Shown: positions 5,705 to 31,736 of the stretch, in pieces | Numbering within the stretch: the stretch's first letter is position 1 | Layout: each line of letters begins with the position of its first letter | Assembly (NCBI GenBank): GCA_026710655.1 | Contig: JAPOQN010000042.1 | Coordinates: 1 to 64,000, forward strand | Origin: Chloroflexota bacterium | GTDB lineage: Bacteria > Chloroflexota > Dehalococcoidia > Tepidiformales > Tepidiformaceae | DNA length: 64,000 bases | Direction of reading: 5' to 3' | Notes under the pieces: model-generated | Databases searched by the model: none | What the model saw: only the letters and a program-made list of their open reading frames with translations | Told to the model about the DNA's origin: nothing | Position numbers and translations under genes: made by a program

Positions 5705-5784
5705 GCACCCCTGTGTGCGGTCTCTCCTGCGTTAAGGCGTAGCCCAGCAGGCGGCCTGTGGATCGCAAACCCGAGCCACCGAGG

Positions 5785-8008: not shown

Positions 8009-8026
8009 GAGCACCTTCGTGTGCTC
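8009..8026. terminator. Weak hairpin between convergent genes
   Basis: GAGCAC (8009-8014) pairs with GTGCTC (8021-8026) around a 6-nt loop, in the 51-bp space between the NYN gene and the end of the modification operon. The stem overlaps the minus-strand stop codon. No T-tract. Confidence 0.25.
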
Positions 8027-8579
8027 ACCTGGAGAAGTACGTCTGTAGCCGCCTTCCGACGTAGTACATCACCAGATCGGTCATATAGCCGACGACCTCA
8101 GCAGTGAGTGGTTCCTCACGGTCAACGCCATGCCATGCCTCGACACACTTCCGACAGCATGTCGCGGTGGCATGCTGGGCATAGAAGATGACGTTGCCAG
8201 CGAACGGGGTCTGCATGCCATCGCGCGACAACTCTGACCTCGGTCTCCCTAGGTACCTCCGCAGGCGATGGGCCGTTGCTTCGCGAAGGCCGACGAGCCC
8301 CTTCCCCTTAGCGTGGTTGATAGCCTTGCCGTCCAAGGGCTTGGTCCAGAACTCACGGCGAATCAACTCTTGCTGGAGAGACAAAACCGTGTACTCGATG
8401 TCCCCGGTGTCGTGCCGGTCCAACCGGCGCCAATCGACCAACTTCGCCCCGCAGGCCCGGCATCCCTCGCTTCTATAGGACTGGCCTCGCGGCTTCCATC
8501 GGACAAACGAATGGAGGCCCCTGGCGCAGTCATAAGATGTTGCCTTCACGACCAGCGTGCCGTCAGTGCTGGCAGCCAT
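8025..8579 (-). CDS. DUF4186-like zinc-site protein at the end of the dpd modification operon
   Basis: 184 residues from ATG 8579, preferred because GGAGG lies 9 nt upstream; ATGs at 8600 and 8624 are badly placed. The N-terminal half holds a treble-clef-like CRACGAKL. The C-terminal half matches DUF4186: FYAQHATATCCRKC, then EAWHGV and LTAEVVGYMTDLVMYYV. The Cys-Cys-x2-Cys-x4-His cluster looks like a metal site. It is the last gene of the operon, 63 nt after dpdA, in the same direction and without a terminator. DUF4186 has no known function and I know of no assigned dpd role, so this may be an accessory or substitute component. Confidence 0.7.
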   Translation of the reverse strand: MAASTDGTLVVKATSYDCARGLHSFVRWKPRGQSYRSEGCRACGAKLVDWRRLDRHDTGDIEYTVLSLQQELIRREFWTKPLDGKAINHAKGKGLVGLREATAHRLRRYLGRPRSELSRDGMQTPFAGNVIFYAQHATATCCRKCVEAWHGVDREEPLTAEVVGYMTDLVMYYVGRRLQTYFSR

Positions 8580-8642
8580 GTGCGAATCCCTCCGATTCAT
8601 CTCCTTCTGGAACGGGCAAGGCAAACCGCACTGGAGCCCAAA

Positions 8643-9845
8643 TCATCCCGGAGCTGCTGCGAGTTCTCGCTGGCGCTCGATCCGGCGGCGCAGCACCCAC
8701 AGGTTGTGGAACCCTCGACGCCTGTTGCGATTGTTCCCGCGGAAGATCGCCACCTCAACGCCCAGCTCCCTGCAGACAGGGCAAGGGCACTTGTCCCAAG
8801 GGCGGGCACGCAAGAGATCCCGGTAGAGCTGGCCCCTTCGGTCGGCGTCGCTCTCGTACGGGCGAGCTCCAAGCATGGCGTCATAGGCATTGATGCACTT
8901 GAGCGTCTCCTTAATTCCGAGTGTGCGCTTTGCGTAGGCGCGCACAGCGGCCAGGGCATCCTGTTCCGCCTGCTTGAGGTCCTGGAAAGAAGCTTCACTA
9001 CGACCCACGAGTGAGGCGCTGAAGCCTCTCCCCTCTCTCGCGACAGGGATTCGGATGGCCGCGTATGCCCCATCCGCCGTGTAGTAGTTGTCCTTCGCGG
9101 ACAGCCAGGCCTGTCGCAACGGCGCCGCACTATCGGCGCTGGTTACCCCCAACTCGATGAGCAGCGGAAGCAATTTGGCTCGGGCAACGCCAAAGACGTG
9201 CACCTGGGCGCGACCCGCTGTCACCCGCGACACAGCCGTCAGCACGCTGGTGATGTCGCGAGTGTTACTCCGTGCCAAGCCGCCAATGGCAATGTAGGTG
9301 TAGCCCATCTCAACGAGGGCGTTTGCAGCCTCAACATAGGTGCATTCATCCCAGCCTTGGGCTGCCCCAACCGGAGCGAAGCTGAACTCCCCTTCGCGGT
9401 GCATGGCCAGGAAGGTCTCGGCGTTGCGAAGGGTGAGGTCAAAGCGGTAAGTCCGCTGGTCCTCGAACTCCGGAAGAATGATGTGGTCGACCGAGACACC
9501 GTAGTCGAAGCCCAATCGCTCATAGTGGTCGATAACGTCTTCCGTCGCGAAGACAGGATCACGTCGCTCGATGTAGCCGAACGCGCCGCAGTCGCCGAAC
9601 AATTCCAACTGCTCAGGCAACCGCAAGTAACCCTTCATCCCCACCTGCTCTACCCGGTCGCGCTTTCGTCCCTTGCGGTACAGGGCCATGCGCGAAACCA
9701 GGACCCCGTCGTACAAGGGATCGTCGAAGAGTTCGTGGGCGTAACGGTCGTCCCGATAGGGATCGCGCTTCAGCGTCATCTTGTCGGTGAGGAAGTCGTA
9801 TCCCGGATCGACACGGTCGTCCCAATCAGGAAGAAAGAACTTCAC
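8643..9845 (-). CDS. dpdA: DpdA, DNA-guanine transglycosylase (TGT paralogue)
   Basis: 400 residues from GTG 9845, which overlaps the upstream stop as GTGA. A (beta/alpha)8 TGT-like enzyme. SVDHI has the first conserved Asp (120), AIGGLA (186-191) is the base-binding Gly pair, VHVFGV (215-220) is the core strand, and DSAAPLR (238-244) holds the predicted nucleophilic Asp of the TGT family. The C-terminal zinc site is CPCPVC (353-358) with His at about 380. In Salmonella Montevideo, DpdA with DpdB is sufficient to place preQ0 in DNA by exchanging guanine. The surrounding queC/D/E and dpd genes separate it from the housekeeping tRNA enzyme. Confidence 0.92.
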   Translation of the reverse strand: MKFFLPDWDDRVDPGYDFLTDKMTLKRDPYRDDRYAHELFDDPLYDGVLVSRMALYRKGRKRDRVEQVGMKGYLRLPEQLELFGDCGAFGYIERRDPVFATEDVIDHYERLGFDYGVSVDHIILPEFEDQRTYRFDLTLRNAETFLAMHREGEFSFAPVGAAQGWDECTYVEAANALVEMGYTYIAIGGLARSNTRDITSVLTAVSRVTAGRAQVHVFGVARAKLLPLLIELGVTSADSAAPLRQAWLSAKDNYYTADGAYAAIRIPVAREGRGFSASLVGRSEASFQDLKQAEQDALAAVRAYAKRTLGIKETLKCINAYDAMLGARPYESDADRRGQLYRDLLRARPWDKCPCPVCRELGVEVAIFRGNNRNRRRGFHNLWVLRRRIERQRELAAAPG

Positions 9846-10462
9846 GCCCGACTTCCTTCTCCACAGACACCCCAAACGCCCAGGGCGGCGTTGAGCCCTT
9901 GCTCGACGGCATCGTCAACGAATGACGCGAATTGGCTGGCTGCAACGTCTCGAGGAGACACGCCCAAGTCTCGCGCAGCATCGGTGCCACAGGGAACCAC
10001 CACAGCCTTGCCGAACCCCCGATTAACCTGAGGCGACGCAAAGTAGAGTTGAGTGGCGGGGACTTCAAAGGGTGCGCCGGCCGCCTGGAGGTAGACCAGC
10101 GGCAGGACGAACACCGCTGTGTCGAACGCCCCCAGCTGTGTCCGCAGCCCACTCGGTAGCGCAAGTTCAAGACCGCGCCGCCTGGCCGCCCCCGGGCTCT
10201 TGCCCGTGATGGTTTCTTCGTAAAGCGGGACCTGCGCCATCTCGCCAACCAGACCAAACCTGGCGGAGACGATCGACCACTCAATGTGATCCTGGGTACT
10301 GCTCCCACGCCACCGATCGATGGCTTCGCGCACTTGGCAATGAGCACGCCCGGCGTAGCGTTCCCGAGCAGGTAGCAGTAGGTCTGATCTGCGGTCTGAC
10401 TTCCGGTCACCCAGCTTGCGTTTCGAGCAAGCGCTGACCACGAGAACGCGGTGCGCCGTCAT
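9842..10462 (-). CDS. DpdC candidate (DUF6884/YaaA-like), predicted nitrile-to-amide step
   Basis: 206 residues from ATG 10462, with GAGG 8 nt upstream; a longer version from 10561 lacks a ribosome site. The N-terminus VLVVSACSKRKL is followed by ARERYAG, IVSARFGLV and VPLYEETITG, the pattern of DUF6884/YaaA-fold proteins. CSxRK is reminiscent of the CSARKPY motif of archaeosine synthase ArcS, which acts on the preQ0 nitrile. The gene sits between queE and dpdA, overlapping dpdA by 4 nt. In the known system DpdC converts DNA preQ0 to the amide form (dADG). Position and motif together suggest this is the DpdC of this cluster, but I cannot confirm orthology. Confidence 0.55.
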   Translation of the reverse strand: MTAHRVLVVSACSKRKLGDRKSDRRSDLLLPARERYAGRAHCQVREAIDRWRGSSTQDHIEWSIVSARFGLVGEMAQVPLYEETITGKSPGAARRRGLELALPSGLRTQLGAFDTAVFVLPLVYLQAAGAPFEVPATQLYFASPQVNRGFGKAVVVPCGTDAARDLGVSPRDVAASQFASFVDDAVEQGLNAALGVWGVCGEGSRA

Positions 10463-10587
10463 CGGCTGAACCTCGGCTCCTGGTTTCAGGGTGAGGGGCG
10501 CAGGATATGCCTTTTCAGCCACTTGGTGTCTCCGAGGCTGCAGGGCAGCATGAGCCTTCATGGAGTCGTCACGACGCCGGCACCTTG

Positions 10588-11295
10588 TCAGAATCCCCGT
10601 TCATCTCCCCAAATCAAGATGTGCAGGCGCGTTGAGAACCGGTAGCCCCGGTCGCTACACAGAGGTGCAAGCCACGTCGAGCGTTCCTTGAGGGCTTCCG
10701 GTGACGCGCCCTGAGGCATCAGGATCACCCGCTCATCGGGAACCTTGAATCTGGCCAGCAGGCACTGGATCTCATCGAGGTCAGTGGGTGTATCGACAAC
10801 AAACTTGAACCACGCGTTATCCGACGCCGCGAACCACTCCAGCGGTTGGTCCAGTTGTCGCCGCTCGACCGGGTTGCCCGAGTTCGCCAATTTCGGCGAG
10901 ACATTCCACTGTGAGATGTGGGTCTGCAGCAGTGACTGGGGAGCAAACGTGCCGTTCGTCTCCACTTCAATGCGGTGTCCCAGCTGCACCAGATCGCCCA
11001 CGAGTTCCACCAGAGACGCCTGCTGCATCAGGGGCTCGCCTCCGGTGACAACCACGTTCTCGACGCCGAGTTCAGAGACGCGAGCAACGACCGCAGCGCA
11101 GTCGACAGCCGTGACCTCGACCTTTGGGTCGTAGTGCTCCCAATCCCACGTGTACCTCGTGTCACACCACGAACAGGCGAGATTGCAGAGGGACAGCCGG
11201 ACAAAGGTGCTTGGCCGGCCCGCCGAAGCACCCTCCCCCTGAATCGAGGTGAAGATCTCTGGCTCGCCGGTCGAGAGTCGAGCGAGTTTCAACAA
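10588..11295 (-). CDS. queE: QueE, 7-carboxy-7-deazaguanine synthase (radical SAM)
   Basis: 235 residues. Radical-SAM cluster ligands are C37, C41 and C44 in LCNLACSWCDT; the N-terminal FTSIQGEG and the VVTGGEPLM motif (SAM binding) are diagnostic for QueE. It converts 6-carboxytetrahydropterin to CDG. The start is probably TTG (11295, with another TTG next to it), which is rare; the first residues LKLARL fit the family N-terminus and the codon lies 3 nt after the queC stop. Translation probably depends on coupling to queC. Confidence 0.95.
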   Translation of the reverse strand: MLKLARLSTGEPEIFTSIQGEGASAGRPSTFVRLSLCNLACSWCDTRYTWDWEHYDPKVEVTAVDCAAVVARVSELGVENVVVTGGEPLMQQASLVELVGDLVQLGHRIEVETNGTFAPQSLLQTHISQWNVSPKLANSGNPVERRQLDQPLEWFAASDNAWFKFVVDTPTDLDEIQCLLARFKVPDERVILMPQGASPEALKERSTWLAPLCSDRGYRFSTRLHILIWGDERGF

Positions 11296-11298
11296 GTC

Positions 11299-12036
11299 TC
11301 AGACCAGGGACATCAGAGGATCGGCCACGCCAGCCTCAGCAAAGCCCTTGGCTCGGAGTAGGCAACTGTCACAGCGACCGCAGGGCACAGCCCCACCCTC
11401 ATAGCAACTCCACGTCTTGTCGAGCGGCGCATCGATGGCAACGGCATGGCGAACAATGTCGGCCTTCGTCATGTGCAGAAGGGGAGTCGCTATCTCAAAC
11501 GGCACCCCGTACTGCGTCCCTATCTTGCTCCCCAAGCGAAGCGTCTCGGCCAGGCTCTCGTAGAACTCTGGGCGGCAGTCGGGATACCCACTGTAGTCGA
11601 TGGCGTTCGCGGCGATGAAGAGAGTCGCCTGGACCGGCTCGGACGGGCCACCGTCACGTTCCAGTTCCTGCAGCGCGTGGCTCTCGAGATAGGCTGAAGC
11701 CAACGCAAGCAGGAACGTGTTCCGCATTGGCACGTAGGTGATAGGGATGTCCGCTGCCATCTCTTCCGCGGAGCGCCCCTCCGGGATGTCAAAGCGGTCC
11801 GGGCTGGTGAGAGCTGAGTACCACGCGAGCCGGCTGAAGAACGAGACATCTACGATCTCATGGCGAAGCCTCAGTTCCTCGGCGACCTCCTTTGCCGAAT
11901 CCAGTTCTCTGCTGTGTACCTGTCCGTAGTGCACGGTGACCGCGACGACTTCGTAGCCGGCCTGAACTGCCTGCGCTGCAACGGTGGTCGAATCCAGCCC
12001 GCCAGAGAGGAGGACCACTCCAAGCTTCCGAGTCAT
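11299..12036 (-). CDS. queC: QueC, 7-cyano-7-deazaguanine (preQ0) synthase
   Basis: 245 residues from ATG 12036, preceded by GAAGGAGA; the longer open frame upstream is read-through of queD. The ATP-pyrophosphatase P-loop SGGLDS is at residues 10-15. YVPMRNTFLLALA and the zinc cluster WSCYEGG...PCGRCDSC close the protein, as in QueC. It makes preQ0 from CDG, ammonia and ATP. The start overlaps the queD stop by 4 nt (ATGA). Confidence 0.95.
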   Translation of the reverse strand: MTRKLGVVLLSGGLDSTTVAAQAVQAGYEVVAVTVHYGQVHSRELDSAKEVAEELRLRHEIVDVSFFSRLAWYSALTSPDRFDIPEGRSAEEMAADIPITYVPMRNTFLLALASAYLESHALQELERDGGPSEPVQATLFIAANAIDYSGYPDCRPEFYESLAETLRLGSKIGTQYGVPFEIATPLLHMTKADIVRHAVAIDAPLDKTWSCYEGGAVPCGRCDSCLLRAKGFAEAGVADPLMSLV

Positions 12037-12476
12037 ATGTGTTCTCCTTCGTCGGTGTTGCCCTCCTGCAGGACGTAGTCCGCGTACTGCCCCGCTTCCC
12101 AGATGCGGACGCGGAGAAGGCTGTCCCCCAATTGGGCTCGCATGACGCAAGACAGGGTTTGCGCCATGACCTCGGCCGAGGGATTGAGCCCAGGGAAGCA
12201 ATACAGCTTGCTCTCCGGAATGACTTGAAGTGCCTCTATCAGCAGGTCATCACGGTCATTGAGGAGGAACGCATGGTCCCAGTGAGCGTCAATCCACCGC
12301 TTGAGCGGTCTCTTGATCTCACCGAAGTCGATGGCGAGGCCGAGGTCATCCAGGTGTGCCCTACCGACGAAGAGTTCCGCCCGGTAGGTGTGCCCGTGGG
12401 GAGAGGCACACTTGCCGTCATAGCCCAACAGACGGTGGGCCGCATCGAAGGACACTTCGACGCGGTCTATGAACAT
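12033..12476 (-). CDS. queD: QueD, 6-carboxytetrahydropterin synthase
   Basis: 147 residues, ATG 12476 after AAGGAG. Zinc ligands H14 (FDAAHRL), H27 and H29 (CASPHGHTY) and the catalytic C23 are all present; WDHAFLLND and the terminal IWEAGQYADY also fit. It converts dihydroneopterin triphosphate, the product of FolE, into CPH4. It is separated from dpdB by 12 nt. Confidence 0.95.
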   Translation of the reverse strand: MFIDRVEVSFDAAHRLLGYDGKCASPHGHTYRAELFVGRAHLDDLGLAIDFGEIKRPLKRWIDAHWDHAFLLNDRDDLLIEALQVIPESKLYCFPGLNPSAEVMAQTLSCVMRAQLGDSLLRVRIWEAGQYADYVLQEGNTDEGEHI

Positions 12477-12488
12477 GGCGCCTTCTCC

Positions 12489-13658
12489 TTACCTACGCGG
12501 GCCAAGCAGAACCGCCACGGATGAAGGAGCACCCCGGCTCGCCTGCTTGGTGCTCTTCGGGAAATCAAGACCGATTAGACGGGACAACTCGTCGGAGAGG
12601 AGTTGGATGGAGGTCGAAGTGTTGTTCACGCGCCCACCTTGCAGAGCTACGCTCTGCCACCCCGGGTTGGTCAATCGCCAATCTACCACGGGGTCGCCCG
12701 CTTTTGAACACTCGCCTAAGCGTTTTAGTGAATCTTTCCACGTTTTGTCTGACTGGGCGCGCGCGCGCCGTGCGACCTCCGCGAGCGCGCGCTGCGCAAC
12801 ACCATGTCCGACCAGCTGCCGCTGCCGTAGATAGGCCGGGTGTTCTTCATCGTCGCGGACCATGCGCCACGCGGGAATGGCGTCGGTCAGGCAGTCGAAC
12901 ACCTCGACGACGTCATCGGCAAGGCGCTCCTCCTCCTCCGAAGTGATGTCGTCAGCGAGGTCCCCGATGAGGGTCCGCACCATCTCGTACAGGGTCGACA
13001 GCGTCATGAATTGGCGGGCGTTTGTGGACAGGCTCGTGCTCTCCAGGTTCATGCGGCCTCGTAGCAACTGAGCTTGGTCGCACACCCGCTTTGCGATGCG
13101 CGCGTGCGGGTCACGATGAGCAAAGAGGAGGGAGATGGACTTGGAGGGGGCCTTCGCGTTCCTGTTGAGATCGCTGAACAGCGTCTGTGATTTGGAGATG
13201 TCACCGAAGGGTACGAGGATGAGAGCGATGTGCTCGCCCGCCAATTCAGGGCGCTGCCTTATCGCGATCTCGATGGACTTCAGCCTGTGCTGACCATCTA
13301 GCGCGTAAAGCGACTCTGTCCCGTCCAGGGTTAGTTGCCCAAAGTCGATACCGCCGGGAAACTGCGCCGTTGCCTCGAAACTGAGGGCCTCGCAGCCTCG
13401 ACCCATAGTGCGGACCTCGACCGTCAGCGCAGAGTAGAAGTGGTCATCGTTCGTCACGAGATAGGGAACCATCTCCTTCTCGACACGCTGAGAATTCAGC
13501 TTGCGCTGCAGTTTCAGTTCCGGAGGCGTCTCGGAGGTCCACCCGTCCACCTCCTCGGCATAGTCGATCATTCGGGCGGCCTCGCCCAGGGTCATGACCG
13601 ACACGAAATACTCGGTAACCCCGATCCTGGCGCGCATTGCGGGAACATACGTTGCCAT
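12489..13658 (-). CDS. dpdB: DpdB, DGQHR/DndB-like protein
   Basis: 389 residues from ATG 13658, 9 nt after AAGGAG; the ATG three codons earlier touches that site. YALDGQHRLKSIE holds the DGQHR signature at residues 121-125 in a ParB/DndB-like fold, and FSDLNRNAKAPSKS follows, as in DndB-type proteins. In Salmonella, DpdB works with DpdA to insert preQ0 into DNA; its exact biochemical role is unsettled and it is absent from some clusters. Here it is the first gene of the operon that also makes the base. In phosphorothioation, the related DndB binds DNA and controls transcription, so a regulatory role is possible. Confidence 0.88.
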   Translation of the reverse strand: MATYVPAMRARIGVTEYFVSVMTLGEAARMIDYAEEVDGWTSETPPELKLQRKLNSQRVEKEMVPYLVTNDDHFYSALTVEVRTMGRGCEALSFEATAQFPGGIDFGQLTLDGTESLYALDGQHRLKSIEIAIRQRPELAGEHIALILVPFGDISKSQTLFSDLNRNAKAPSKSISLLFAHRDPHARIAKRVCDQAQLLRGRMNLESTSLSTNARQFMTLSTLYEMVRTLIGDLADDITSEEEERLADDVVEVFDCLTDAIPAWRMVRDDEEHPAYLRQRQLVGHGVAQRALAEVARRARAQSDKTWKDSLKRLGECSKAGDPVVDWRLTNPGWQSVALQGGRVNNTSTSIQLLSDELSRLIGLDFPKSTKQASRGAPSSVAVLLGPRR

Positions 13659-13953
13659 CCGGCTCATCTCCTTCTTAGGCCGCCACGTTTACGTCCGCAG
13701 CGAGCGCGACGGGGGACGTAGGCAACCTGCACTTCGATCCCTGCCAACTCTCGCGGATCTCGACTCTGCTGACAAGGCCCTCACTTATTGAAGGCGACTC
13801 ACCTAACACGCGCCGGCGGCCTAGAAGAAGGTCGTCGGTGCCCTGTCCCACAGGCGCGGCCCTGCCCGCTACAATCCAGCGGGTGCATGCGTAGATAGTC
13901 GTAGGCGCTGAACTTTCCCTTCGAGACCGGTCGCACCGGAGCCGCTGCAGAGT
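13659..13953. promoter_or_regulatory. Divergent control region between the two dpd operons
   Basis: 295 bp separate dpdB (leftward) from dpdE (rightward). For dpdE there is a -10 TACAAT at 13870-13875 in the context GCTACAATC, the same 9 bases that precede the tRNA gene, with no clear -35. AAGGAG (complement, 13670-13675) serves dpdB. A minus-strand TTGTCA near 13770 is a possible -35 for dpdB, but its -10 is poor. I see no preQ1-type riboswitch and no clear operator palindrome. Confidence 0.4.
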
Positions 13954-23700: not shown

Positions 23701-23775
23701 CAGACAGCCCGCATCGAGACGGCATTCGCGAACCTTGAAAGGGCCCTCAAAGAAGTGGGGGAACCCGACCCATGA
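20728..23775 (+). CDS. dpdH: DpdH, large P-loop ATPase
   Basis: 1015 residues, ATGA overlap with dpdG. Walker A GDSGSGKSHFVHW begins at about residue 70; LVLLVEDLVRAEG (about 290-302) is a good Walker B with an acidic pair. A CSSCQHRAVC cluster near residue 400 may bind zinc. The 850-1015 part is strongly helical and charged, a probable coiled coil (EQIAEAAEHERELRLAWLD). The architecture resembles STAND/AAA-type ATPases used as DNA-sensing scaffolds in defence systems. It forms a coupled pair with the small coiled-coil protein DpdI. Confidence 0.8.
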   Translation: MSFERVVCWNPDRVSRVMEIEAEEAQPPIFMAVHTDEPLALTRPRGRRTAREFLDEFLGSHGDVRAVVIGDSGSGKSHFVHWVRLNIPDQPDLRVVSVPRSGTSLRWIVERLINELPPSMQDDYRRLLVQVPRSGTDFKDLQLRLLTQVVIALQGEQHTSDTDRELAESLRDFLFEGPLKEHHAGAAGIITELAKHITFTTSGREDRVTRRRFQESDLHLDYVMTKQGDELSGPTRSFLRILQGNRELRERAVELVNENLDTAVTATLGLSSGQLTEMLNNIRRYLHSQGQQLVLLVEDLVRAEGIDRALLGALIERGDDLCDLRLLIAVTTGYYEREMLDTQKTRMDFIINLDGRPPLDEQDRLAPFAARYLNALRLPASELDRWFEESRNGGTTPLPNACSSCQHRAVCHASFGSRPIKGAGDVGLYPFTAQALTNMAARSRSEGHLGPRELLRDMLRPVVRERRAHAIEDGDFPDEALLESHDGPKLPLDVQAQIRSLGGANAARYVTLVELWSARPGLASQLPESLYGAFALPPLTLGEDAVPSNGAEDGAPSNSPPTDEPSTTSAVPSAVRRRLSAIEEWGNRGTMTGATTNDLRGLVFRAIVAAVDWDSEGLEQAVFAGSRGGARDSFQRTGIDFDRQDTARTRRQVTLHLPLADDPDSLLQTARALQGLVNFDHFGDWNFEDGLDQFLVVSEELPKWTHHVIAQLRGVHDPQREWDPVASAVEVLAIGATLGSRPPKVGASLPERLAAMFEEWPEPLQLQVQSDKWRSLYRAIYDRRDNLRDLVLSHASAMKGGQSGPMIEATQVVRPLRAISRDWRPRAEPPERLDETNLAPRYSLLLELHRRITEQIAEAAEHERELRLAWLDEVRGDMPAGVERRAVVSSIEDLIAAIGSYGLPVRHDQLREPLEEFKAAHVDEAIRITEELRSLEGPVRGQLARLASERRGNAVQAASRFLSTTKQFLDNVESRARSEKEKTTATQSATEQTARIETAFANLERALKEVGEPDP

Positions 23776-24506
23776 CGGACGACCGCAGCATTGTCGGACG
23801 AGCAGATGGCTTGAGGGTCGAGGTTGAAAAGCTCAGTGCGCTTCGCAGGGCTGCCGCTTCCTCCACGACCCTTGAGACACGCGCTGACCAACTCGAGAAT
23901 GCAGCCACTGGTCTTCTTGAGCAGGCGGGTCGGGTTCAACTCTTCCGGGCGCATGGCATCAGGCTTTCTTTCAATGTCGACTTGCAGGAGCAGCTACTCA
24001 AAGCGACAAGGGAGCATCGAAGTGCGTTCGACGCGGACCCTGCTTCGATCGTGGCCGACCCCACGGACTCGACCTTCAAGTACGAATACCTGAGGGGACT
24101 TGAGAGCCTTCACGCTTCCATCAGGAGGAGGCTGGGGGACGAGTGGAATCGCTACATCGACTCACTCACTCCTGGAGGACTCTCTGAACTCGAGGAGGCT
24201 CTTACCCGCGTTCCCCAGGTGGCTGGCGACCTCGCGGCCATCCGAAGACTCCACGCAACCCTGAACGCGGAACGCGCGGAGGCGCCAACGAGCGTTGCGG
24301 ACTTCGAAAGAGCGGAGGCGGTCGCTCAAGACTTGCAGGATCATTGGCAAACCCTGCAGAGCATCCCTGAAGACGTTCGCGAGTTCTTGGCTGCCGCATC
24401 GACCGGTGGCGCTCCCCTCGACGACCTAACGCCAAGCATTCGGGATTGGCTCGAAAAGACCAACTCTCTTGGCCTGCTTCGATACGTCTTGAAGGAAGAG
24501 GCGTGA
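23772..24506 (+). CDS. dpdI: DpdI, helical coiled-coil protein
   Basis: 244 residues, ATGA overlap with dpdH. Almost entirely helical by composition, with heptad-like runs (RVEVEKLSALRRAAASS, LEEALTRVPQVAGDLAAI), and no enzymatic motif. Assigned by its position between the ATPase DpdH and the helicase DpdJ. Salmonella dpdI is one of the genes associated with the restriction-like phenotype. Most likely a structural partner of DpdH, whose C-terminus is also coiled-coil. Confidence 0.72.
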   Translation: MTDDRSIVGRADGLRVEVEKLSALRRAAASSTTLETRADQLENAATGLLEQAGRVQLFRAHGIRLSFNVDLQEQLLKATREHRSAFDADPASIVADPTDSTFKYEYLRGLESLHASIRRRLGDEWNRYIDSLTPGGLSELEEALTRVPQVAGDLAAIRRLHATLNAERAEAPTSVADFERAEAVAQDLQDHWQTLQSIPEDVREFLAAASTGGAPLDDLTPSIRDWLEKTNSLGLLRYVLKEEA

Positions 24507-27500
24507 CGGCGACGGCCACGGAGCAGCAACTCGACGATCTCCTGCTCAGGATTGAGCGAGAGGAGATGCGCTCCCTGCGATGGGGAGCAACCAGTGCCTC
24601 ACTCTCCGAAGATGACCTCATCCGATTCGCCCGTGAAATCGCCGGTGAATATCCAGAGGGGGCCGCCGGCGAACTGCTCGAACGGCGCCTGCTCTTTCGC
24701 GTCCCAGCACCGGGCGGCAGCGTCCGCTACCGGTCCCGTTTTGGCGAGGGCGTACGGCTGTTGACCTCGCTCCGGCAGATTTTTCCTGGTGGACGCTGGG
24801 AAGCTGCACCCCAACTCGTCGCTGACTTCCGGGCCGACCTCCGCGAGCGCCAGTTCCCTCGACGGGATAGGCAGGCGCAGGATGTCATTGGACGCTTGGC
24901 GAGCAGGTTCGATTGGAACTCCAGGGATGTCGCGATAGCCGCCGCTCTACTCTCTGACTGGTACCTCTCCGCATTCCAGGAGCGCGCGTCTGAGTCGATA
25001 CTGCGCAGGGGCTCCACTGACAGTGGCGTCGTCATCTCCGCTGGCACAGGGGCCGGAAAGACCCTCGCCTACTACTTCCCGGCAATCATGCTCGTCGCAG
25101 GGGAGGTCCGTCCGGAGGAGTTCTGGACCAAGGCAGTCTCCGTCTACCCGCGCAACGAGCTTCTCAAGGATCAATTCGCTGAGGCGATCCGTTATGTTCA
25201 ACTGATTGGCGGCACTTGCAACCGCCCCCTGAGGATCGCGACGCTGTTCGGCCCAACGCCCCAAAGTGCGGACCTGTCATCCCTCCAACGGTCGACATGG
25301 GAACGGCTCCGTGGGAATCGAGAGGACTTCGTCTGCCCCTTCGCCGTATGCCCAAACTGCTCGGGCCGTCTCATCTGGCGCGAGGAGGACATCAGCACGG
25401 GTCGTGAGAAGCTGGTGTGTGAGGGTGCAGTTGGCGACACTCCAACCTGCCAGTTCGCAACGGATCCCACACAAGTCCTCCTGACTAGGGACGCGGTCCG
25501 CAACAAGCCGCCGGATCTGCTCTTCACGACAGCGGAGATGTTGAACCAGCGGATGAGCGACCCGGGAATGCGGCACGCTTTCGGACTCGGCCAGGACCGA
25601 AGGAAACGCCCCCTGTTGATGCTCCTCGATGAGGTGCATACCTACGAGGGCGTCCCGGGGGCTCAGGCCGCCATGGTATTCCGTCGTTGGCGCTACGGTG
25701 TCGACGCTCCGGTGCGCTGGGTGGGTCTCAGCGCCACGCTGCGGGGCGGTCCAGCTTTCTTTAGCCAGGTGACCGGGGTTCCAGAGTCGGCCATCGTAGA
25801 GGTGGCACCGTCCGTCGATGAACTCGAGACTCGAGCCGCGGAGTATCAACTCATTCTCCGAGGCGACCCACTTTCGCAGACCTCCCTCCTGTCTACCTCT
25901 ATTCAGACAAGCTTTCTCCTTTCCCGGCTACTGGATCCTGAGGTCGGTTTGTCCAGGGGGCGCGCCGGAAAGCGCACGTTCGTATTCACCGACGATCTGG
26001 ACGTCACCAACAGGCTCTTTCACGACCTGCGCGATGCGGAGCGTCAAAATCTTGCACTAGAACGAGCTACCGACCGTGCTCCAGGACAGCGCGCCTTCGC
26101 GGCCGGCCAACAGTGGAGGCTGGTGGAGGAGATTGGCTGGGAACTCGATCGCCCCCTCGACGTGTCACGCACGAGTTCCCAGGACACGGGTGTCAACTCA
26201 GACAGCCAGCTCGTAGTTGCTACCGCGTCCCTTGAAGTGGGGTTTGACGACAATCGGGTAGGAGCCGTCGTCCAGCACAAGTCACCCTATCGGGCGTCGT
26301 CGTTTGTTCAGAGGAAGGGCCGTGGCGGTCGGACACACGAGATGCGTCCGTGGATGGTCACCGTACTCAGTGACTACGGGCGTGACCGCACCACCTACCA
26401 GGCCTACGAGCGGCTCTTCGACCCCATCGTTGAACCACTGCGACTGCCTATCGCCAACGGCTACGTTCGCCGAATACATGCGGCATTCGCATTCATCGAC
26501 TGGTTGGCGACCCGTCTCAACTCCCGCACATGGTGGTGGTGGGGAGCCAGCAGACCGGGACGCGGAAACGGGAACGCGCAACGGGAACTCGCGGGCCTGC
26601 TCGAAAAGCTGTTGGATCGTGACCAGACAGAACTGGGGCGACTGAACAGGCACCTGCAGGGAGCACTCGCGCTTCCTGAGGCCGATGTCGACGCGTTGCT
26701 GTGGCAGCCTCCTCGTTCGTTGATGCTCGAGGTGTTGCCAACGCTGGCTCGCCGACTGGCCACGAACTGGGTAACGGCTGCCCCCACAGGGAGGCTGGAT
26801 GCGGTCTCGGACAGCCCCTACCCGCGGCCACTTCCAGAGTTTCTGCCCCCCAACCTCTTCACGGACCTCAACTTGCCTGAGGTCACGATCAGCGGTCCTG
26901 GCATTGAGGCCGGCACGTCGCTCCTTGTGGAGCAGGCGCTCCGCCATCTCGCACCAGGCCGTGTAACCCGCCGGTTCGCGCCGGGACCAGGGGAGACATA
27001 CCACTGGGTGTCCATCCCGCATGATGGAACGGAGCAACACAACCTTCCGCTCAGTGAGTTCATTTCCCGTGCGCATGTCGCCTCACAGGTGGAGGTCACC
27101 CTGGACGGCACTCCGAACGAGCTGACCGTCTATAGGCCGTGGGAGATGTCGCTATCGGTTGCACCCACTGGTCGAAGCGGTCGACAAGGAGACCTCTTAC
27201 CCAGTTCCAATGCCCGGCTCCGTTGGTACTCGGAGATCATCCCGCAGGGTGAGGCACTCAGAGTCGAGGCTGCTCACGACCCCATTTGGAGCAAGGTGAT
27301 AGCCAGTTTGGGGTTCTACCTCCATGACCAGCGCACTCCGCTCACAGTCCGGAGATTTGCCGCGGAAGCCAAAGCGGACCTTCGCCGTAGAGGGGGCTCC
27401 GAAGGGACAACCGTTCAAGTTCGGTTCCTCGATCCCTATGAGCCCGACAAACCAGCGGCGATTGGTTATGAGGCTGAGGTCGACGGCCTAGCCGTGCGGT

Positions 27501-29047
27501 TCCGTGAATTTGATGAACAGGACATCGCCCGGGAAGCTGATACGGCGCCTTCGCTGCGAGTGTGGCGAACCGCCTATGTGCGCGATCTCGTGCTGTCCGA
27601 CGCAGAACTCCCTGCTCCATCGGACATCTTCCTGCGAGAGAGACTGTTTGAGGCGTACCTCCTTGCAGTGGTGAGCACCGCGCTCAAGGAGGGGATGCAC
27701 GCCAGCAGCGCAAACGAACTGCTGCGCACAGATTCGGGCGCCGAGCGGTTCGAGCCCCTCCTTGCAAGCATCTTCTACGTTGAGCGGAAGTCTGAGCGGG
27801 TGGAAGAGGGAGACGTGGGAAGCGAAGGAGACGACGCTGAAGAGAGGAGTGGCGGCGATAGTTTCAAGGCAGCCAGGAAAGGGCTCTCCGCTCGCCTTCT
27901 CCACCTCCTGCAAAGGAGCGAGCTTCGCAGTCGCCTCGCTGACCTCTTCGCCGAGTGCTGGACACCCAACCCGGCCACGTGGCAACGCTGGCTTGGGGAT
28001 TCGCTCCACAACACCCTCTCGGAGGCTGCTCGTGCTGCGGCTCTCTCGACCGCTCCAGATCATGTCACCGAAGACTCTGTGTGGCTCGATCTGGGCCGAC
28101 AGAGCGGCGCGCGCCTAGGCGGCCCCCGTGAAGCGTGGATCACTGAGTCGGCGATCGGAGGGGCTGGTGTCGTGGAAGCGGTAGCAACTTCCTATGCATC
28201 CGAGCCTCGATCCTTCTTCCGCGCCTTCGAGTTCGAATTGCTTCCAGGGGAGTTCGAGCTGAGTTCAAACGATCTCGACGCTACGGTGCGCCTTGGTGCG
28301 GAGGACGCGGAAGTTCGCGCGGCCCTCAGTGCCACCCAAGGTACCGATGACCATGAGGCGCGCGACGAGCAGATGCACGAACTGAGCTCTTTGCTACAGC
28401 GCCGCGGCATTTCGCCCGGACATGCCTTCCTTGCGGCTCTGAACCAGCGCGTGTTGCGCCCTGGCATGACAGAGGATGCGTGCCGTCTACTGAGTGACCT
28501 TGTGACATTCTGGACCGACGTCGAGCGTGACCACGGTGTTGCCCTGGACCTCCGCACCTTCTGCAGTCTCGCTGCGCAAGCAACCCAACTCGGACCGCGC
28601 CAGACGAGCGCCACGCTTCTGGAGTTTCTAGCGGGCCAAGCCGGCGTAGCCCTTACCTCGGCCGAGCGCGCTGGCGTCCTGATGGGCCTCCTGTGGCCCA
28701 GATCGCACGAAGCACGACGACACGCCCTAGGCTCGTGGTCACCGTTCCGTGATGCTGGATTTGCTGACCCCGCCCTTCTTCGCGAGCTGCTACTCCGTGA
28801 TGAGGTTCCGGAAGTGCCTGTCGCAGACCCTGAGTGGGACGCAAGAGTCAGAACAGCACTCGCGCGGACGGGCATCGTGCGGGTTCGTGCGGAGGGAAGC
28901 GAGACTGAGGATTTACAAGCCACCCTGCTCCGCTTCATCGCGGAACCCGTCGATGTCGGATTTCTGCAGCTGTTCCCCGTCGTTGAACAACTCCGTCGGG
29001 AAGAGCGAGCACACATCGCCGTCCTGGCCCTTCGGGGGATCGTGTGA
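24503..29047 (+). CDS. dpdJ: DpdJ, large DEVH-box helicase
   Basis: 1514 residues from GTG 24503 in a GTGA overlap with dpdI; a longer frame from 24446 would overlap dpdI by 60 nt. SF2 helicase motifs: AGTGAGKTLAYY (about 178), LLDEVHTYEG (about 373), GLSATLRG (about 407), ATASLEVGFDDNR (about 572) and FVQRKGRGGRT (about 600), in the style of Lhr/DrmA-type helicases. CPFAVCPNCSG near 277 begins a zinc-like insertion between motifs I and II. About 800 residues after the helicase core have no motif I can name. This is the longest gene of the window. Its resemblance to DISARM helicases is structural style only. Confidence 0.83.
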   Translation: MTATATEQQLDDLLLRIEREEMRSLRWGATSASLSEDDLIRFAREIAGEYPEGAAGELLERRLLFRVPAPGGSVRYRSRFGEGVRLLTSLRQIFPGGRWEAAPQLVADFRADLRERQFPRRDRQAQDVIGRLASRFDWNSRDVAIAAALLSDWYLSAFQERASESILRRGSTDSGVVISAGTGAGKTLAYYFPAIMLVAGEVRPEEFWTKAVSVYPRNELLKDQFAEAIRYVQLIGGTCNRPLRIATLFGPTPQSADLSSLQRSTWERLRGNREDFVCPFAVCPNCSGRLIWREEDISTGREKLVCEGAVGDTPTCQFATDPTQVLLTRDAVRNKPPDLLFTTAEMLNQRMSDPGMRHAFGLGQDRRKRPLLMLLDEVHTYEGVPGAQAAMVFRRWRYGVDAPVRWVGLSATLRGGPAFFSQVTGVPESAIVEVAPSVDELETRAAEYQLILRGDPLSQTSLLSTSIQTSFLLSRLLDPEVGLSRGRAGKRTFVFTDDLDVTNRLFHDLRDAERQNLALERATDRAPGQRAFAAGQQWRLVEEIGWELDRPLDVSRTSSQDTGVNSDSQLVVATASLEVGFDDNRVGAVVQHKSPYRASSFVQRKGRGGRTHEMRPWMVTVLSDYGRDRTTYQAYERLFDPIVEPLRLPIANGYVRRIHAAFAFIDWLATRLNSRTWWWWGASRPGRGNGNAQRELAGLLEKLLDRDQTELGRLNRHLQGALALPEADVDALLWQPPRSLMLEVLPTLARRLATNWVTAAPTGRLDAVSDSPYPRPLPEFLPPNLFTDLNLPEVTISGPGIEAGTSLLVEQALRHLAPGRVTRRFAPGPGETYHWVSIPHDGTEQHNLPLSEFISRAHVASQVEVTLDGTPNELTVYRPWEMSLSVAPTGRSGRQGDLLPSSNARLRWYSEIIPQGEALRVEAAHDPIWSKVIASLGFYLHDQRTPLTVRRFAAEAKADLRRRGGSEGTTVQVRFLDPYEPDKPAAIGYEAEVDGLAVRFREFDEQDIAREADTAPSLRVWRTAYVRDLVLSDAELPAPSDIFLRERLFEAYLLAVVSTALKEGMHASSANELLRTDSGAERFEPLLASIFYVERKSERVEEGDVGSEGDDAEERSGGDSFKAARKGLSARLLHLLQRSELRSRLADLFAECWTPNPATWQRWLGDSLHNTLSEAARAAALSTAPDHVTEDSVWLDLGRQSGARLGGPREAWITESAIGGAGVVEAVATSYASEPRSFFRAFEFELLPGEFELSSNDLDATVRLGAEDAEVRAALSATQGTDDHEARDEQMHELSSLLQRRGISPGHAFLAALNQRVLRPGMTEDACRLLSDLVTFWTDVERDHGVALDLRTFCSLAAQATQLGPRQTSATLLEFLAGQAGVALTSAERAGVLMGLLWPRSHEARRHALGSWSPFRDAGFADPALLRELLLRDEVPEVPVADPEWDARVRTALARTGIVRVRAEGSETEDLQATLLRFIAEPVDVGFLQLFPVVEQLRREERAHIAVLALRGIV

Positions 29048-29559
29048 TGAGCGCCCACCCCAGCCGGGACATCGCGTCGCAGAGGTCATATGACGTGCCA
29101 CGGGATGTCCTTCAGTCTCTCTTCGTACTTGAGCTGCTCTCGCCCAGCCGTCCCTTGTGGATCCTGTCACCGTGGATTAGCGATGTTGCGTTGATCGACA
29201 ACCGAGGCGGGCGATTCTCCGCTTTGGAGCCGGCGTGGCCAAGCGCAGAGATCCGCCTTCTCTCTATCCTCAGCGCGCTGGCCTCCCGAGGCGGGAAAGT
29301 GGTCATCGTCTCCAACAAGGCATCTCACAACGACGAGTTTGAGCGTCGCTGCAAAGACCTAGGAGACCGGGACATCTCGTTTCTTCGCGAAGACGACCTA
29401 CACACGAAGGGAATCGTGGGAGAGAGGTTCATGATCTCCGGGTCGATGAACCTCACTCACAACGGCGTCTTTCGCAACGACGAGCACCTGCTGTACGAAA
29501 CTGACCCCGCTCGCATTCATGAGTGGCGTGTTGAACTCGACCAGCGCTGGGGGACGTAG
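29044..29559 (+). CDS. dpdK: DpdK, phospholipase D-like protein
   Basis: About 170 residues. GTG 29044 and ATG 29047 are adjacent in frame; both overlap the dpdJ stop. One PLD (HKD) motif: H-T-K-G at about residue 118, followed by the diagnostic GSMNLTHNG. A single motif means two chains are needed for one active site. PLD folds in defence (DISARM DrmC, BfiI-type endonucleases) are often metal-independent nucleases, so this is the best candidate for the DNA-cutting subunit of the system. It lacks a signal peptide, consistent with a cytoplasmic role. Confidence 0.85.
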   Translation: MMSAHPSRDIASQRSYDVPRDVLQSLFVLELLSPSRPLWILSPWISDVALIDNRGGRFSALEPAWPSAEIRLLSILSALASRGGKVVIVSNKASHNDEFERRCKDLGDRDISFLREDDLHTKGIVGERFMISGSMNLTHNGVFRNDEHLLYETDPARIHEWRVELDQRWGT

Positions 29560-29561
29560 AC

Positions 29562-31736
29562 ATGATCCTCCGGGATCAAGCAGCGCGTGATGCGCTGCGA
29601 GACGAGATTCGGGACGTCCTCAACTGGAACCCACATGGCACGTCCGGCCAGGAGCGCCGACTTGCTGATGTCTACGCATCCATAGACGAACCCAGAATGC
29701 CCGGCGCTGTCATTCCAGTAGTTCACGACAACCAGCTCCTGTTCTACGCCGTGGCCGACAATCCCAGTGAATGGCGGCGCCTTGCTCCGTTGCTCCTGGC
29801 GGCAGTTGGCGTAACCCTGACCGACTTCGACGGCAGGCCTGTTGGAGCACCCGGCCCCGTCGGGGGCACTCTTCGCAGGCATCAGTTGGAGGTGCGAGGG
29901 TTCTCAGCTCCAGCGGGCAATACCAAGCAAGCCGGGAGAACTGTCGACGCATTGGGTCGACTTGTTGTCACGTTACGGACAATGCCGGTAGCACTACGGG
30001 AACTTCCTCGGAGCGCCCCCCAAGTCCTCCACGAATTCGACCTTGCGCTGCAGGTCGGAGATCGCCAGGGATCGCTCTCGAGACTGCACGAACTCGAAGA
30101 GCGTCGAGCTATCGACTCACTGAATCTGCGTTTCTTGTCCGTTCGTTGGCACGCTGCATTTCGGGAGTGGCAGTCCCTTCGGGAACAGAGGTGGTTCCAC
30201 GACCTGTCCCAAACGAGACGTCCCCCGCACGTCACGAGCGAACTCCTGAGGGCACTGTACGAGGTCGACATGGCCGGTCCGTCACTGCTGGGCGACTCCA
30301 CGGCACTGCTCGGTCGTTTCCGCAACATGGCAGCCACCGAGATTGGCACTCTCTGTGACCCGCTGCCGCCATCCCCGTCCGGACCCGCCTCAATCATGTT
30401 GGCGCTCGATGGAGTAGCGCGTGATGACGAGGCGCGCCTTGCGGCCCTCCGCGACGTACCGACCGAGACCTGGAACTCTGAGGAGCAGTCTGCATTCAGG
30501 GAGGTGCTTGCCCTGAGGCCAGTGTCGTCCTCTGTGGTCTCGGAGCAGTCTCCGAGGGAAGCACTGGTTGACTTGCAGCGAAGGATCGATGGGGGTCAGC
30601 GACTTACCCCGGTAGAGCGCATCGCCATCCAGGAACTCGTCGCAAGTGACGGTTCTCTGACGCTCCAGCAATTGCTCAGCACTCTCGTCGGCGACGACCC
30701 GGACCGAATGCCAGCCCTGGGCTCTCCAGTCGAGGACTCGCCCGCAGCAGTTCCCGACGACTGGAGCACTGACACCTGGAGCGAGTGGTTCGAAGCGCTC
30801 CCTACGCTCAGCCCCCAAGCAGCACGGCAGACAGCAGAGCGTCTCGCCGACGAAGTCAGCCTCATCGACCATGTGCCGACCCCGGAGGATCGTGACCGCC
30901 TCGCCTCTGACATACAGGAAGCCCTAGCAAGAAATGAGGAGAGTGCGGTTCTGGCACTCCCCCACCTGGCTCGCTGGATGCAGAACGAGGAGGGTTGGCC
31001 GCGCGCGGACCTGGGCCCGCTGTACAAGGCGCTGCTGGTGTCCTTTCTCCTCTTCGATTCCCGCACCGTCGATGGTTTCCGCTCCTCCCTCTCAATTCTC
31101 GATGGGTGGTTGAGTACCGGTCCCGACAAGTCGGACTATTCCGAGGTGATTGGGGAGTTCAGAGAGGCGCTCGAAGGGCTGTCCTCCGTGCGGACGCTCG
31201 ACTCCCTCATCGATCTTGCAGAACTTCTGGTGGTCCACCCCACTCAAGATGCTGAACTCCGAGGCGAGCTCTGGGTAGAAATTCAGGCAAGAGTGAGTGG
31301 GCTGCAACAGTGGATGACGCGGTCTCAGGTCGCGCTCCTGAACGGCCTCTGTGACATTCTTGGGGTCCCGCAGGCACTCGACGTTGCCGACCGACGCGCC
31401 CCAGAAACAGACGCCGTGGCCACGTGGCGAGGCACGATCGGCATGTACACACTGAGACCATCCATAGGCCAGCGGGTCCCGGATGCTCTGAGAGAGCGAA
31501 TTCCGGATGCCGAAGTGAGGTGGAACGATGACCATGTGGCGACAGAGCGGCTGCGGAATCTTGCAGAGCGCAGCGACCTCATGGTCGTCGACTGGTCAGC
31601 AGCAAAGCACTCGGCGACAGATGCGATACGAAAGGCTCGAGCCGAGGGCGAGGTACTGTGGGTGTGTGGAGGTGCCTCCACGATAGTTACCTCAGTCCTC
31701 AATGCGCTGCGGGAACTTCACGCGAAGGGCGCCTAG
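29562..31736 (+). CDS. dpdD: DpdD
   Basis: 724 residues, 2 nt after dpdK, with no overlap but no room for a promoter. No P-loop or nuclease motif is visible. The first 110 residues (LLFYAVADNPSEWRRLAPLL) resemble a small alpha/beta domain, and the rest is largely helical. Recognised by its place at the end of the restriction operon and by the segment RWHAAFREWQSLREQRWF with RRPPHVTSELLRALYE. In Salmonella, dpdD is one of the genes behind the restriction-like effect. Its stop is 6 bp from the stop of the convergent SIR2 gene. Confidence 0.72.
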   Translation: MILRDQAARDALRDEIRDVLNWNPHGTSGQERRLADVYASIDEPRMPGAVIPVVHDNQLLFYAVADNPSEWRRLAPLLLAAVGVTLTDFDGRPVGAPGPVGGTLRRHQLEVRGFSAPAGNTKQAGRTVDALGRLVVTLRTMPVALRELPRSAPQVLHEFDLALQVGDRQGSLSRLHELEERRAIDSLNLRFLSVRWHAAFREWQSLREQRWFHDLSQTRRPPHVTSELLRALYEVDMAGPSLLGDSTALLGRFRNMAATEIGTLCDPLPPSPSGPASIMLALDGVARDDEARLAALRDVPTETWNSEEQSAFREVLALRPVSSSVVSEQSPREALVDLQRRIDGGQRLTPVERIAIQELVASDGSLTLQQLLSTLVGDDPDRMPALGSPVEDSPAAVPDDWSTDTWSEWFEALPTLSPQAARQTAERLADEVSLIDHVPTPEDRDRLASDIQEALARNEESAVLALPHLARWMQNEEGWPRADLGPLYKALLVSFLLFDSRTVDGFRSSLSILDGWLSTGPDKSDYSEVIGEFREALEGLSSVRTLDSLIDLAELLVVHPTQDAELRGELWVEIQARVSGLQQWMTRSQVALLNGLCDILGVPQALDVADRRAPETDAVATWRGTIGMYTLRPSIGQRVPDALRERIPDAEVRWNDDHVATERLRNLAERSDLMVVDWSAAKHSATDAIRKARAEGEVLWVCGGASTIVTSVLNALRELHAKGA

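What the first reader, a model, noticed from the sequence alone, without database searches (positions are those of the whole stretch)
8025..31736. Near-complete dpd (7-deazaguanine in DNA) modification-restriction island in two divergent operons
Seen: a TGT paralogue, a DGQHR protein, QueC/D/E and a DUF6884-like protein in one operon; two smaller helicases, a winged-helix-like protein, a P-loop ATPase, a coiled-coil protein, a giant DEVH helicase, a PLD protein and a DpdD-like protein in the other. Known: in Salmonella Montevideo dpdA and dpdB insert preQ0, dpdC makes the amide, and dpdE/G/I/K/D (possibly J) give restriction. Inference: this host's DNA carries dPreQ0 or dADG, and the second operon attacks unmodified DNA. 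Clear separation of modification and restriction into divergent units is a tidy architecture for studying control.
Basis: partly seen in the sequence, partly recalled or inferred. Interest (0 to 1): 0.85.

Follow-up and report, generated by a model that had tools for sequence, protein, structure and literature searches.

The report
dpd DNA-modification island, unusual partner gene
This stretch carries an almost full gene set of a known bacterial defence that marks the cell's own DNA with an altered guanine and attacks unmarked DNA, but the usual helper gene of the marking enzyme is missing and a distant cousin, more like a part of another DNA-marking system, sits in its place.

Summary
All eight genes at 13954-31736 match Dpd restriction families (DpdI below its cut-off). 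The genome's only QueC is the island's; of 8 other genus genomes, one has a partial 32.7-bit match. FolE lies elsewhere. Best read as an acquired dpd modification-restriction island, complete but for folE.

One correction makes it a variant. The gene in the dpdB slot is not canonical DpdB: DpdB models of PADLOC and NCBIfam miss it but find known-type DpdBs. It shares the DGQHR superfamily with DpdB and resembles DndB of phosphorothioation systems more (192 bits), yet misses DndB's cut-off (328) too. The two nearest islands share it. A tree test rejects one origin with DndB-like genes of cyanobacterial dpd islands (p-AU 0.0037).

Modification and restriction are inferred by homology, not shown. 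DUF4186 and a Dsr1-like sirtuin gene beside the island have no counterpart in 84 other DpdA loci.

The parts
12489..13667 (-). DGQHR protein (392 aa) in the position of dpdB, more like DndB than DpdB but under DndB's curated cut-off; first gene of the modification operon
   Evidence: PF14072 245 bits, PADLOC DndB E 1e-64, TIGR03187 DGQHR 148 bits over cut-off 58.85, TIGR03233 DndB 192 of 328; no DpdB model at E 0.01; DGQHR at aa 124-128
12033..12476 (-). QueD, 6-carboxytetrahydropterin synthase
   Evidence: PF01242 86 bits, TIGR03367 75.7 bits; CxxxHxH present
11299..12036 (-). QueC, preQ0 synthase (open frame to 12201; the ATG at 12036 follows a GGAG and overlaps the queD stop)
   Evidence: TIGR00364 184 bits over cut-off; junction read; only QueC match of the assembly
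10588..11295 (-). QueE, 7-carboxy-7-deazaguanine synthase (radical SAM)
   Evidence: QueE models up to 103 bits, below cut-offs; PF04055 over cut-off; CxxxCxxC
9842..10561 (-). DpdC relative (DUF6884), predicted to turn the nitrile of dPreQ0 into the amide of dADG; start uncertain
   Evidence: PADLOC DpdC 24.6 bits; DUF6884 in 4 of 4 family members; iterated profile reaches Enterobacter DpdC
8643..9845 (-). DpdA, DNA-guanine transglycosylase (frame open to 9875)
   Evidence: NF041059 429 bits; PDB 7ui4 E 7e-79; D95, D248, C363, C365, C368, H390 invariant in 6 aligned DpdAs
8025..8579 (-). DUF4186 long form with an N-terminal Cys/His-rich segment; last gene of the modification operon (frame open to 8624)
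   Evidence: PF13811 79.7 bits; alignment A5; junction
13668..13953 (.). 286-base gap between the two divergent operons
   Evidence: sequence; no promoter-like match, one 11-base imperfect inverted repeat with arms 13809-13819 and 13848-13858
13954..17334 (+). DpdE, SNF2-type helicase with an extra N-terminal topoisomerase-type zinc ribbon
   Evidence: NF041062 868 bits; PF01396 29.4 bits at aa 11-46, just under its cut-off 32
17331..19874 (+). DpdF, RecQ-like helicase
   Evidence: NF041063 775 bits
19871..20731 (+). DpdG
   Evidence: NF041064 132 bits over cut-off
20728..23775 (+). DpdH, P-loop ATPase
   Evidence: NF041065 591 bits; Walker A at aa 70
23772..24506 (+). DpdI, divergent
   Evidence: NF041066 59 bits, cut-off 150
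24503..29047 (+). DpdJ, large DEVH helicase (GTG start overlapping the dpdI stop)
   Evidence: NF041067 1492 bits; DEVH at aa 395 of the longer frame; junction
29044..29559 (+). DpdK, phospholipase-D-type nuclease candidate
   Evidence: NF041068 183 bits; HxK motif
29562..31736 (+). DpdD
   Evidence: NF041061 351 bits over cut-off
31743..35237 (-). SIR2-domain protein related at its N-terminus to Dsr1, convergent with dpdD; neighbour, not a dpd gene
   Evidence: PF13289 71 bits; NCBIfam Dsr1 219 bits, cut-off 1400, best stretch aa 5-317
35743..35777 (.). GGTCGGT tandem repeat where nucleotide synteny with genus relatives begins (right edge of the unshared segment)
   Evidence: blastn against six relatives' loci: homology starts at 35741-35777; in five it ends within the relative's contig, in L108 it reaches the end of the locus; sequence

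Best explanation
An acquired dpd-type 7-deazaguanine DNA modification-restriction system. Host FolE makes dihydroneopterin triphosphate; island QueD, QueE and QueC turn it into preQ0; DpdA exchanges a DNA guanine for preQ0, with the DndB-like DGQHR protein acting in place of DpdB; DpdC makes the amide (dADG). DpdD-DpdK, with DpdK the likely nuclease and DpdE, F, H and J ATP-driven sensors or motors, restrict DNA lacking the mark. Shown here: family membership, gene order, motifs, no other QueC in the assembly, no canonical DpdB found. Inferred: the chemistry, the partner role of the DGQHR protein, and restriction. The confidence below is for the dpd reading; the partner step on its own I put at about 0.55.
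For: 8 of 8 plus-operon proteins hit Dpd families. DpdA aligns over residues 9-401 to the solved DNA-guanine transglycosylase 7ui4 (S. Montevideo DpdA according to a legend in PMC12137116), with Asp and zinc-type Cys/His residues kept in 6 of 6 aligned DpdAs (their roles are recalled). The own genome's only QueC is the island's; of 9 genus genomes one other has a match, partial, 32.7 bits, over the Pfam cut-off of 22. FolE, Tgt and QueA lie on other contigs. The DGQHR gene opens the same operon in the same order (DGQHR-QueD-QueC-QueE-DpdC-DpdA) in both nearest islands L020 and L021, is 74-75% identical to theirs and keeps DGQHR. It and canonical DpdB both pass the DGQHR domain model TIGR03187 and PF14072. 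It is the only PF14072 match in the assembly.
Against: No DNA nucleoside or restriction data. DpdI and the DpdC relative are weak direct matches. Profile comparison of the window-type plus cyanobacterial alignment with canonical DpdB gives only 78% probability, E 1.7e-5, and a canonical DpdB profile scores the window protein at 2.6 bits. [quoted passage not shown] The assembly is a 93% complete draft, so absences are provisional. The left end of the segment is not resolved because the window starts at the contig end.
Confidence: 0.8

Rival explanations
1. Same dpd system, but the DndB-like protein is a negative regulator, as proposed for DndB in Dnd systems, and DpdA works alone or with another protein. 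This differs from the best explanation only in that step.
For: DndB is proposed to act as a negative regulator in Dnd systems (PMC12839542 passage). Relatives often sit in dnd operons: a DndC match lay nearby in 6 of 11 phylum loci and 5 of 5 plasmid loci read. 19 of 70 classed DpdA rows showed no canonical DpdB, DndB-like or second TGT-like gene, and DpdB is said to be dispensable in some clusters.
Against: The gene is first in, and packed tightly with, the modification operon in 3 of 3 islands of this DpdA branch; it shares the DGQHR domain family with canonical DpdB. One weak inverted repeat only in the divergent gap.
Confidence: 0.38
2. The island is decayed or silent: preQ0 only feeds the host's tRNA queuosine pathway.
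For: Host has Tgt and QueA and no other QueC match.
Against: Frames intact, overlapping genes, motifs kept; DpdA belongs to the DNA-acting family; 8 restriction genes retained.
Confidence: 0.08
3. The plus-operon attacks DNA that carries 7-deazaguanines (modified phage DNA) rather than unmodified DNA.
For: Phages protect DNA with 7-deazaguanines (PMC6884629 abstract start and passages), and a modification-dependent system (GrwAB) acting on such phages is described (PMC12137116 passages).
Against: The island carries the modification genes itself; the S. Montevideo cluster is reported to restrict unmodified plasmid over 1000-fold (PMC5567051 passage).
Confidence: 0.04

Closest known systems
dpd island of Salmonella enterica serovar Montevideo type (Enterobacter plasmid pPOL9A, L018, examined here as a stand-in)
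   Same: DpdA, a DpdC family protein, and DpdE-F-G-H-(hypothetical)-J-K-D in the same order
   Different: L018 has canonical DpdB (PADLOC E 2e-162, NCBIfam 477 of 300 bits) and convergent operons; the window has a DndB-like DGQHR gene, divergent operons, DUF4186, and a zinc ribbon on DpdE
dpd modification operons of Chloroflexi bacterium bin125 (L020, L021)
   Same: Same six-gene order, DpdA 73 and 71% identical, same DGQHR gene; L021 has DpdE (with zinc ribbon) and DpdF divergent as in the window
   Different: No DUF4186 in about 9.9 kb after dpdA in L021 (L020 ends about 0.4 kb after it); L020 has, by eye, a helicase-methylase gene upstream and no DpdE match
Cyanobacterial dpd islands with a DndB-like gene (L016, L032-L034, L039, L041, L045, L047, L054, L081, L091)
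   Same: A DndB-like gene near DpdA
   Different: DpdC fused to DpdA in 11 of 11, a second TGT-like gene in 10 of 11, DndB-like gene on the other strand, 24-26% identical in the 8 aligned; one origin with the window type is rejected, p-AU 0.0037
DndB of dndBCDE phosphorothioation operons (Priestia L125, Aliivibrio L126, Pseudomonas L127)
   Same: 29-33% identity over more than 90% of the protein
   Different: Window protein scores 192 bits on the DndB model, cut-off 328; Priestia DndB 537. The window gene sits with 7-deazaguanine genes. In the tree it groups with L145 (no dnd neighbour seen) and L153/L154 (L153 has a DndC-like, PAPS-reductase-domain gene and a cysteine-desulfurase-like gene about 2-4 kb away), apart from the dnd DndBs

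Membership tests
dpd (7-deazaguanine in DNA) system | DpdA of the DNA-acting TGT family | tested here: met
   NF041059 429 bits against cut-off 200; 7ui4 E 7e-79
dpd (7-deazaguanine in DNA) system | canonical DpdB beside DpdA | tested here: not met
   No DpdB model of PADLOC or NCBIfam at E 0.01; positive controls L018 and L003 match NF041060 at 477 and 486 bits, L018 matches PADLOC DpdB at 1.6e-162; the PADLOC model PDLC02811 finds nothing in the genome (the second PADLOC model was not run genome-wide). A DGQHR relative takes the position. DpdB is reported dispensable in some clusters, so this does not exclude dpd membership.
dpd (7-deazaguanine in DNA) system | DpdC (DUF6884) for dADG | tested here: met
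   Direct match weak, match through relatives firm
dpd (7-deazaguanine in DNA) system | preQ0 supply (FolE, QueD, QueE, QueC) | tested here: met
   QueCDE in the operon; FolE on contig C16
dpd (7-deazaguanine in DNA) system | restriction genes dpdD-dpdK | tested here: met
   8 of 8 matched; DpdI below its cut-off
dpd (7-deazaguanine in DNA) system | dPreQ0/dADG in DNA and restriction of unmodified DNA | not testable with these tools
   needs LC-MS/MS and transformation assays
DndB (equivalog) | score over the curated DndB cut-off | tested here: not met
   192 of 328 bits; control Priestia DndB 537
Dnd phosphorothioation system | DndC, DndD, DndE with DndB | tested here: not met
   no Dnd model other than DndB and related DGQHR models hit the operon proteins; the rest of the genome was not searched for DndC-E
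Dsr1 sirtuin defence (gene 31743-35237) | full-length Dsr1 match over the curated cut-off | tested here: not met
   219 bits of 1400

The most novel reading that the evidence does not exclude
Dpd islands have exchanged their DGQHR protein more than once: in this branch a DndB-like member, not DpdB, lets DpdA put preQ0 into DNA, so the island is a Dnd-Dpd hybrid; DUF4186 at the operon's end may be a further component that changes the final base or its placement.
Probability: 0.35. Interest if true: 0.62.

Novelty: new variant of a known kind. Interest (0 to 1): 0.4.

Why it matters
What DpdB does for DpdA is not settled, and it has been called dispensable in some clusters (PMC12839542 passage). 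A natural island in which a DndB-like DGQHR protein fills its place, with canonical DpdB limited almost wholly to one DpdA branch (8 of 9 rows), offers a direct swap experiment and suggests that DGQHR proteins are exchangeable parts between DNA-marking systems. The dpd survey whose passages I read required both dpdA and dpdB, names eight phyla without Chloroflexota (0 occurrences in the main text), and so may have missed islands like those of bin125. In the window's genome preQ0 synthesis seems to have arrived with the island.

Tried and rejected
DUF4186 as a general dpd component: rejected. phmmer found it in 0 of 84 DpdA loci L016-L099 (many loci end within a few kb of dpdA, L020 within 0.4 kb). 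Its long-form relatives (36-43% identical over the whole protein) sit in a different plasmid gene cluster (XRE - DUF4186 - radical SAM - unknown - ASCH - AAA). Three phage records carry only a DUF4186 core at 29-31%. No solved structure; its model without an alignment was useless (mean pLDDT 36). DUF4186 text search: 4 papers; passages of two were read, neither about dpd.

Viral relatives of DUF4186 and DpdA by pattern scan: none confirmed; one phage record encodes a DpdA, 35% identical. The model of the DGQHR protein was weak (mean pLDDT 51), so no fold search was run. Rfam found only the tRNA-Gly, which lies in sequence shared with genus relatives and so is not taken as the insertion site. 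An empty site was not shown: the left end coincides with the contig start, and relatives differ among themselves left of the boundary.

My first wording, that the DGQHR gene simply 'belongs to the DndB family', was mended after controls: canonical DpdBs also match PF14072 (56-91 bits, 3 of 3) and the DGQHR domain model (2 of 2), and the window protein is under the DndB cut-off. I lowered interest slightly for this.

A first partner table undercounted second TGT-like genes and its DpdJ column also picked up other helicases; its tallies were replaced, in which 3 short DpdA fragments (L054, L079, L097) were dropped and 13 of 83 rows were left unclassed for short flanks. In the DGQHR tree I used 8 of 11 DndB-like genes of cyanobacterial islands (L032, L034, L091 left out), 5 of 129 plasmid records, and 11 of the 14 non-window matches, dropping a 675-aa frame, a copy with a stop, and the weakest hit.
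Full report
What was checked. The window is contig C45, bases 1-64000, of an unnamed 3.14-Mb draft genome in 71 contigs, 93% complete. I translated the genes from 8025 to 35237 and scanned them against PADLOC, NCBIfam and Pfam.

The restriction operon. The eight plus-strand genes match DpdE, F, G, H, I, J, K and D in that order. Seven pass the NCBIfam curated cut-off; DpdI does not (59 of 150 bits, E 6e-16). Six of the seven neighbouring pairs overlap by about 4 bases and K-D are 2 bases apart, as in one transcript. Motif patterns for DpdE, F, H and K were found; my Walker A pattern missed DpdJ, where GTGAGKT is visible by eye in the translation and the DEVH box was found.

The modification operon. 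On the minus strand follow a DGQHR gene, QueD, QueC, QueE, a DpdC relative, DpdA and DUF4186. DpdA is firm (429 bits; PDB 7ui4 over residues 9-401, E 7e-79). The DpdC relative is weak when scanned alone, but DUF6884 is found in 4 of 4 members of its alignment (best E 1e-9), and an iterated profile reaches both the DpdC of Enterobacter plasmid pPOL9A and many ~700-aa DpdAs. In 48 of 83 DpdA rows DpdC and DpdA are one frame, which ties DUF6884 to DpdA.

The DGQHR gene is not canonical DpdB, nor a curated DndB. It scores 192 bits on the DndB model (cut-off 328), E 1e-64 on PADLOC DndB, and matches no DpdB model at E 0.01. Controls: DpdBs of pPOL9A and of relative G031 score 477 and 486 on the NCBIfam DpdB model (cut-off 300); Priestia DndB scores 537 on the DndB model; bin125's two genes behave like the window's (188 and 179 on DndB, no DpdB match). 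All these proteins pass the shared DGQHR domain model, and canonical DpdBs also match PF14072 (90.7, 89.3 and 55.8 bits against the window's 245), so Pfam alone does not separate them; a published survey likewise lists dpdB under the DndB domain (PMC11888242 passage). A profile of canonical DpdBs scores the window protein at 2.6 bits; profile-profile comparison gives 78% probability, E 1.7e-5 over 297 columns. PADLOC model PDLC02811 finds no DpdB in the genome. The annotated plasmid matches whose context I read are dndB genes followed by dndC, dndD and dndE (33, 31 and 29% identical). In 400 genomes of the phylum 12, own included, have a match at E 1e-8 or better; 6 of the 11 other loci have a DndC match nearby, and the closest gene (41%, L145) has no dnd or dpd neighbour recognised within its 19 kb.

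Kin. A scan of 84,980 species genomes kept the best 80 of 363 DpdA relatives. The two nearest are both from Chloroflexi bacterium bin125 (73 and 71%), with the same order DGQHR-QueD-QueC-QueE-DpdC-DpdA. In a quick tree of 83 DpdAs the window and these two form one branch (SH-aLRT 99), sister to a Planctomycetota DpdA whose 4.3-kb contig is too short to show a partner. Of 9 rows with canonical DpdB, 8 form one supported branch, and the ninth (L076) has its DpdB beside a second DpdA-like frame. In a tree of 27 DGQHR proteins the window type groups with L145 and with L153/L154; L153 has a DndC-like gene with a PAPS-reductase domain and a cysteine-desulfurase-like gene nearby, so this group is not cleanly outside Dnd-like contexts. 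One clade of the window type with the DndB-like genes of cyanobacterial dpd islands is rejected (p-AU 0.0037). Long branches are in play, so this is evidence for at least two recruitments, not proof. My two text searches for DpdB with DndB or DpdA (2 and 4 papers) listed no paper whose title or shown abstract start describes such a swap; I read only passages of two of them.

Acquisition. GC is 60-64% from 8 to 36 kb and 62-69% in the flanks, by 2-kb steps. Homology with six relatives of the genus starts at 35741-35777, at a GGTCGGT repeat; in five the relative's sequence goes on without homology, in the sixth (L108) the locus ends there. DpdA over its cut-off occurs in 2 of 99 relatives including the own genome, with 7 more below the cut-off; the other, G031, has a canonical DpdA-DpdB pair of the other branch (L003). 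QueC: the own genome's only match is the island's, and of the 8 other genus genomes (drafts, 89-96% complete) one has a 32.7-bit match to model positions 133-207 of 210, over the Pfam cut-off but partial. The host does have FolE, Tgt and QueA, so without the island it would probably depend on salvaged precursor (inference). The left edge is unresolved.

Function. From the studied S. Montevideo system (passages in PMC11888242, PMC5567051 and PMC12839542; the primary papers were not held, and what I know of them is recalled) I infer preQ0 insertion by DpdA, amide formation by DpdC and restriction of unmarked DNA by DpdD-K. Whether the DGQHR protein replaces DpdB or regulates is the real open point; I favour replacement (about 0.55 against 0.38 for regulation) because it is first in the modification operon in 3 of 3 islands of the branch where the spot can be seen, and shares DpdB's domain family and motif.

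Extras. DUF4186, last in the operon, is found beside no other DpdA (0 of 84 loci). DpdE carries a topoisomerase-type zinc ribbon also seen in L021 but in none of the other 18 DpdE frames listed (a pattern match within the first 260 residues, and the Pfam score is just under its cut-off). A SIR2 protein with a Dsr1-like N-terminus lies convergent to dpdD inside the unshared segment; it has no relative in the 84 loci at E 1e-4.

Noticed in passing
L003 and L016-L099 (DpdA loci): In 48 of 83 DpdA rows a DUF6884 (DpdC) domain is fused to the N-terminus of DpdA, giving a ~700-aa protein.
   Followed up: partly
L012 7087-12923, L013 7051-12991, L014 7038-12901, L015 7008-12969: A plasmid gene cluster with an XRE-type regulator, DUF4186, a radical SAM protein, an unknown protein (weak N6-adenine methyltransferase match in one), ASCH and a small AAA kinase-like protein, in alphaproteobacteria and cyanobacteria; it looks like a nucleotide or DNA modification cluster (the Pfam scan covered L012 and part of L013 only; L014 lacks an annotated gene in the unknown protein's place).
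   Followed up: partly
window 31743-35237: Dsr1-like SIR2 protein directly convergent with dpdD; SIR2-type motifs present, but it scores far below the Dsr1 cut-off.
   Followed up: partly
window 13984-14091 (DpdE aa 11-46): Zinc ribbon on DpdE, seen also in L021 but in none of 18 other DpdE frames.
   Followed up: partly
window 129-743 and 5034-5744: A roughly 600-base element with copies of more than 400 bases in 7 of 9 genus genomes, about 73-83% identical; no Pfam match in the overlapping frames 373-900 and 4895-5944.
   Followed up: no
L020 and L021: One genome bin carries two copies of the modification operon, one beside a helicase-methylase gene and one beside dpdE/dpdF and genes that look like a CBASS operon (both by eye from translations).
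   Followed up: no
L145 6431-10001: The closest match to the DGQHR protein among the 400 phylum genomes, own copy aside (41%), sits next to a 785-aa gene that was not identified; possibly a small unrecognised system.
   Followed up: no
L017, L056, L057, L061, L066, L067, L071, L073 and others: A second TGT-like gene of about 300 aa accompanies many DpdA loci without canonical DpdB or a DndB-like gene (29 of 70 classed rows, 22 of these with fused DpdC-DpdA); it may be the partner there.
   Followed up: partly
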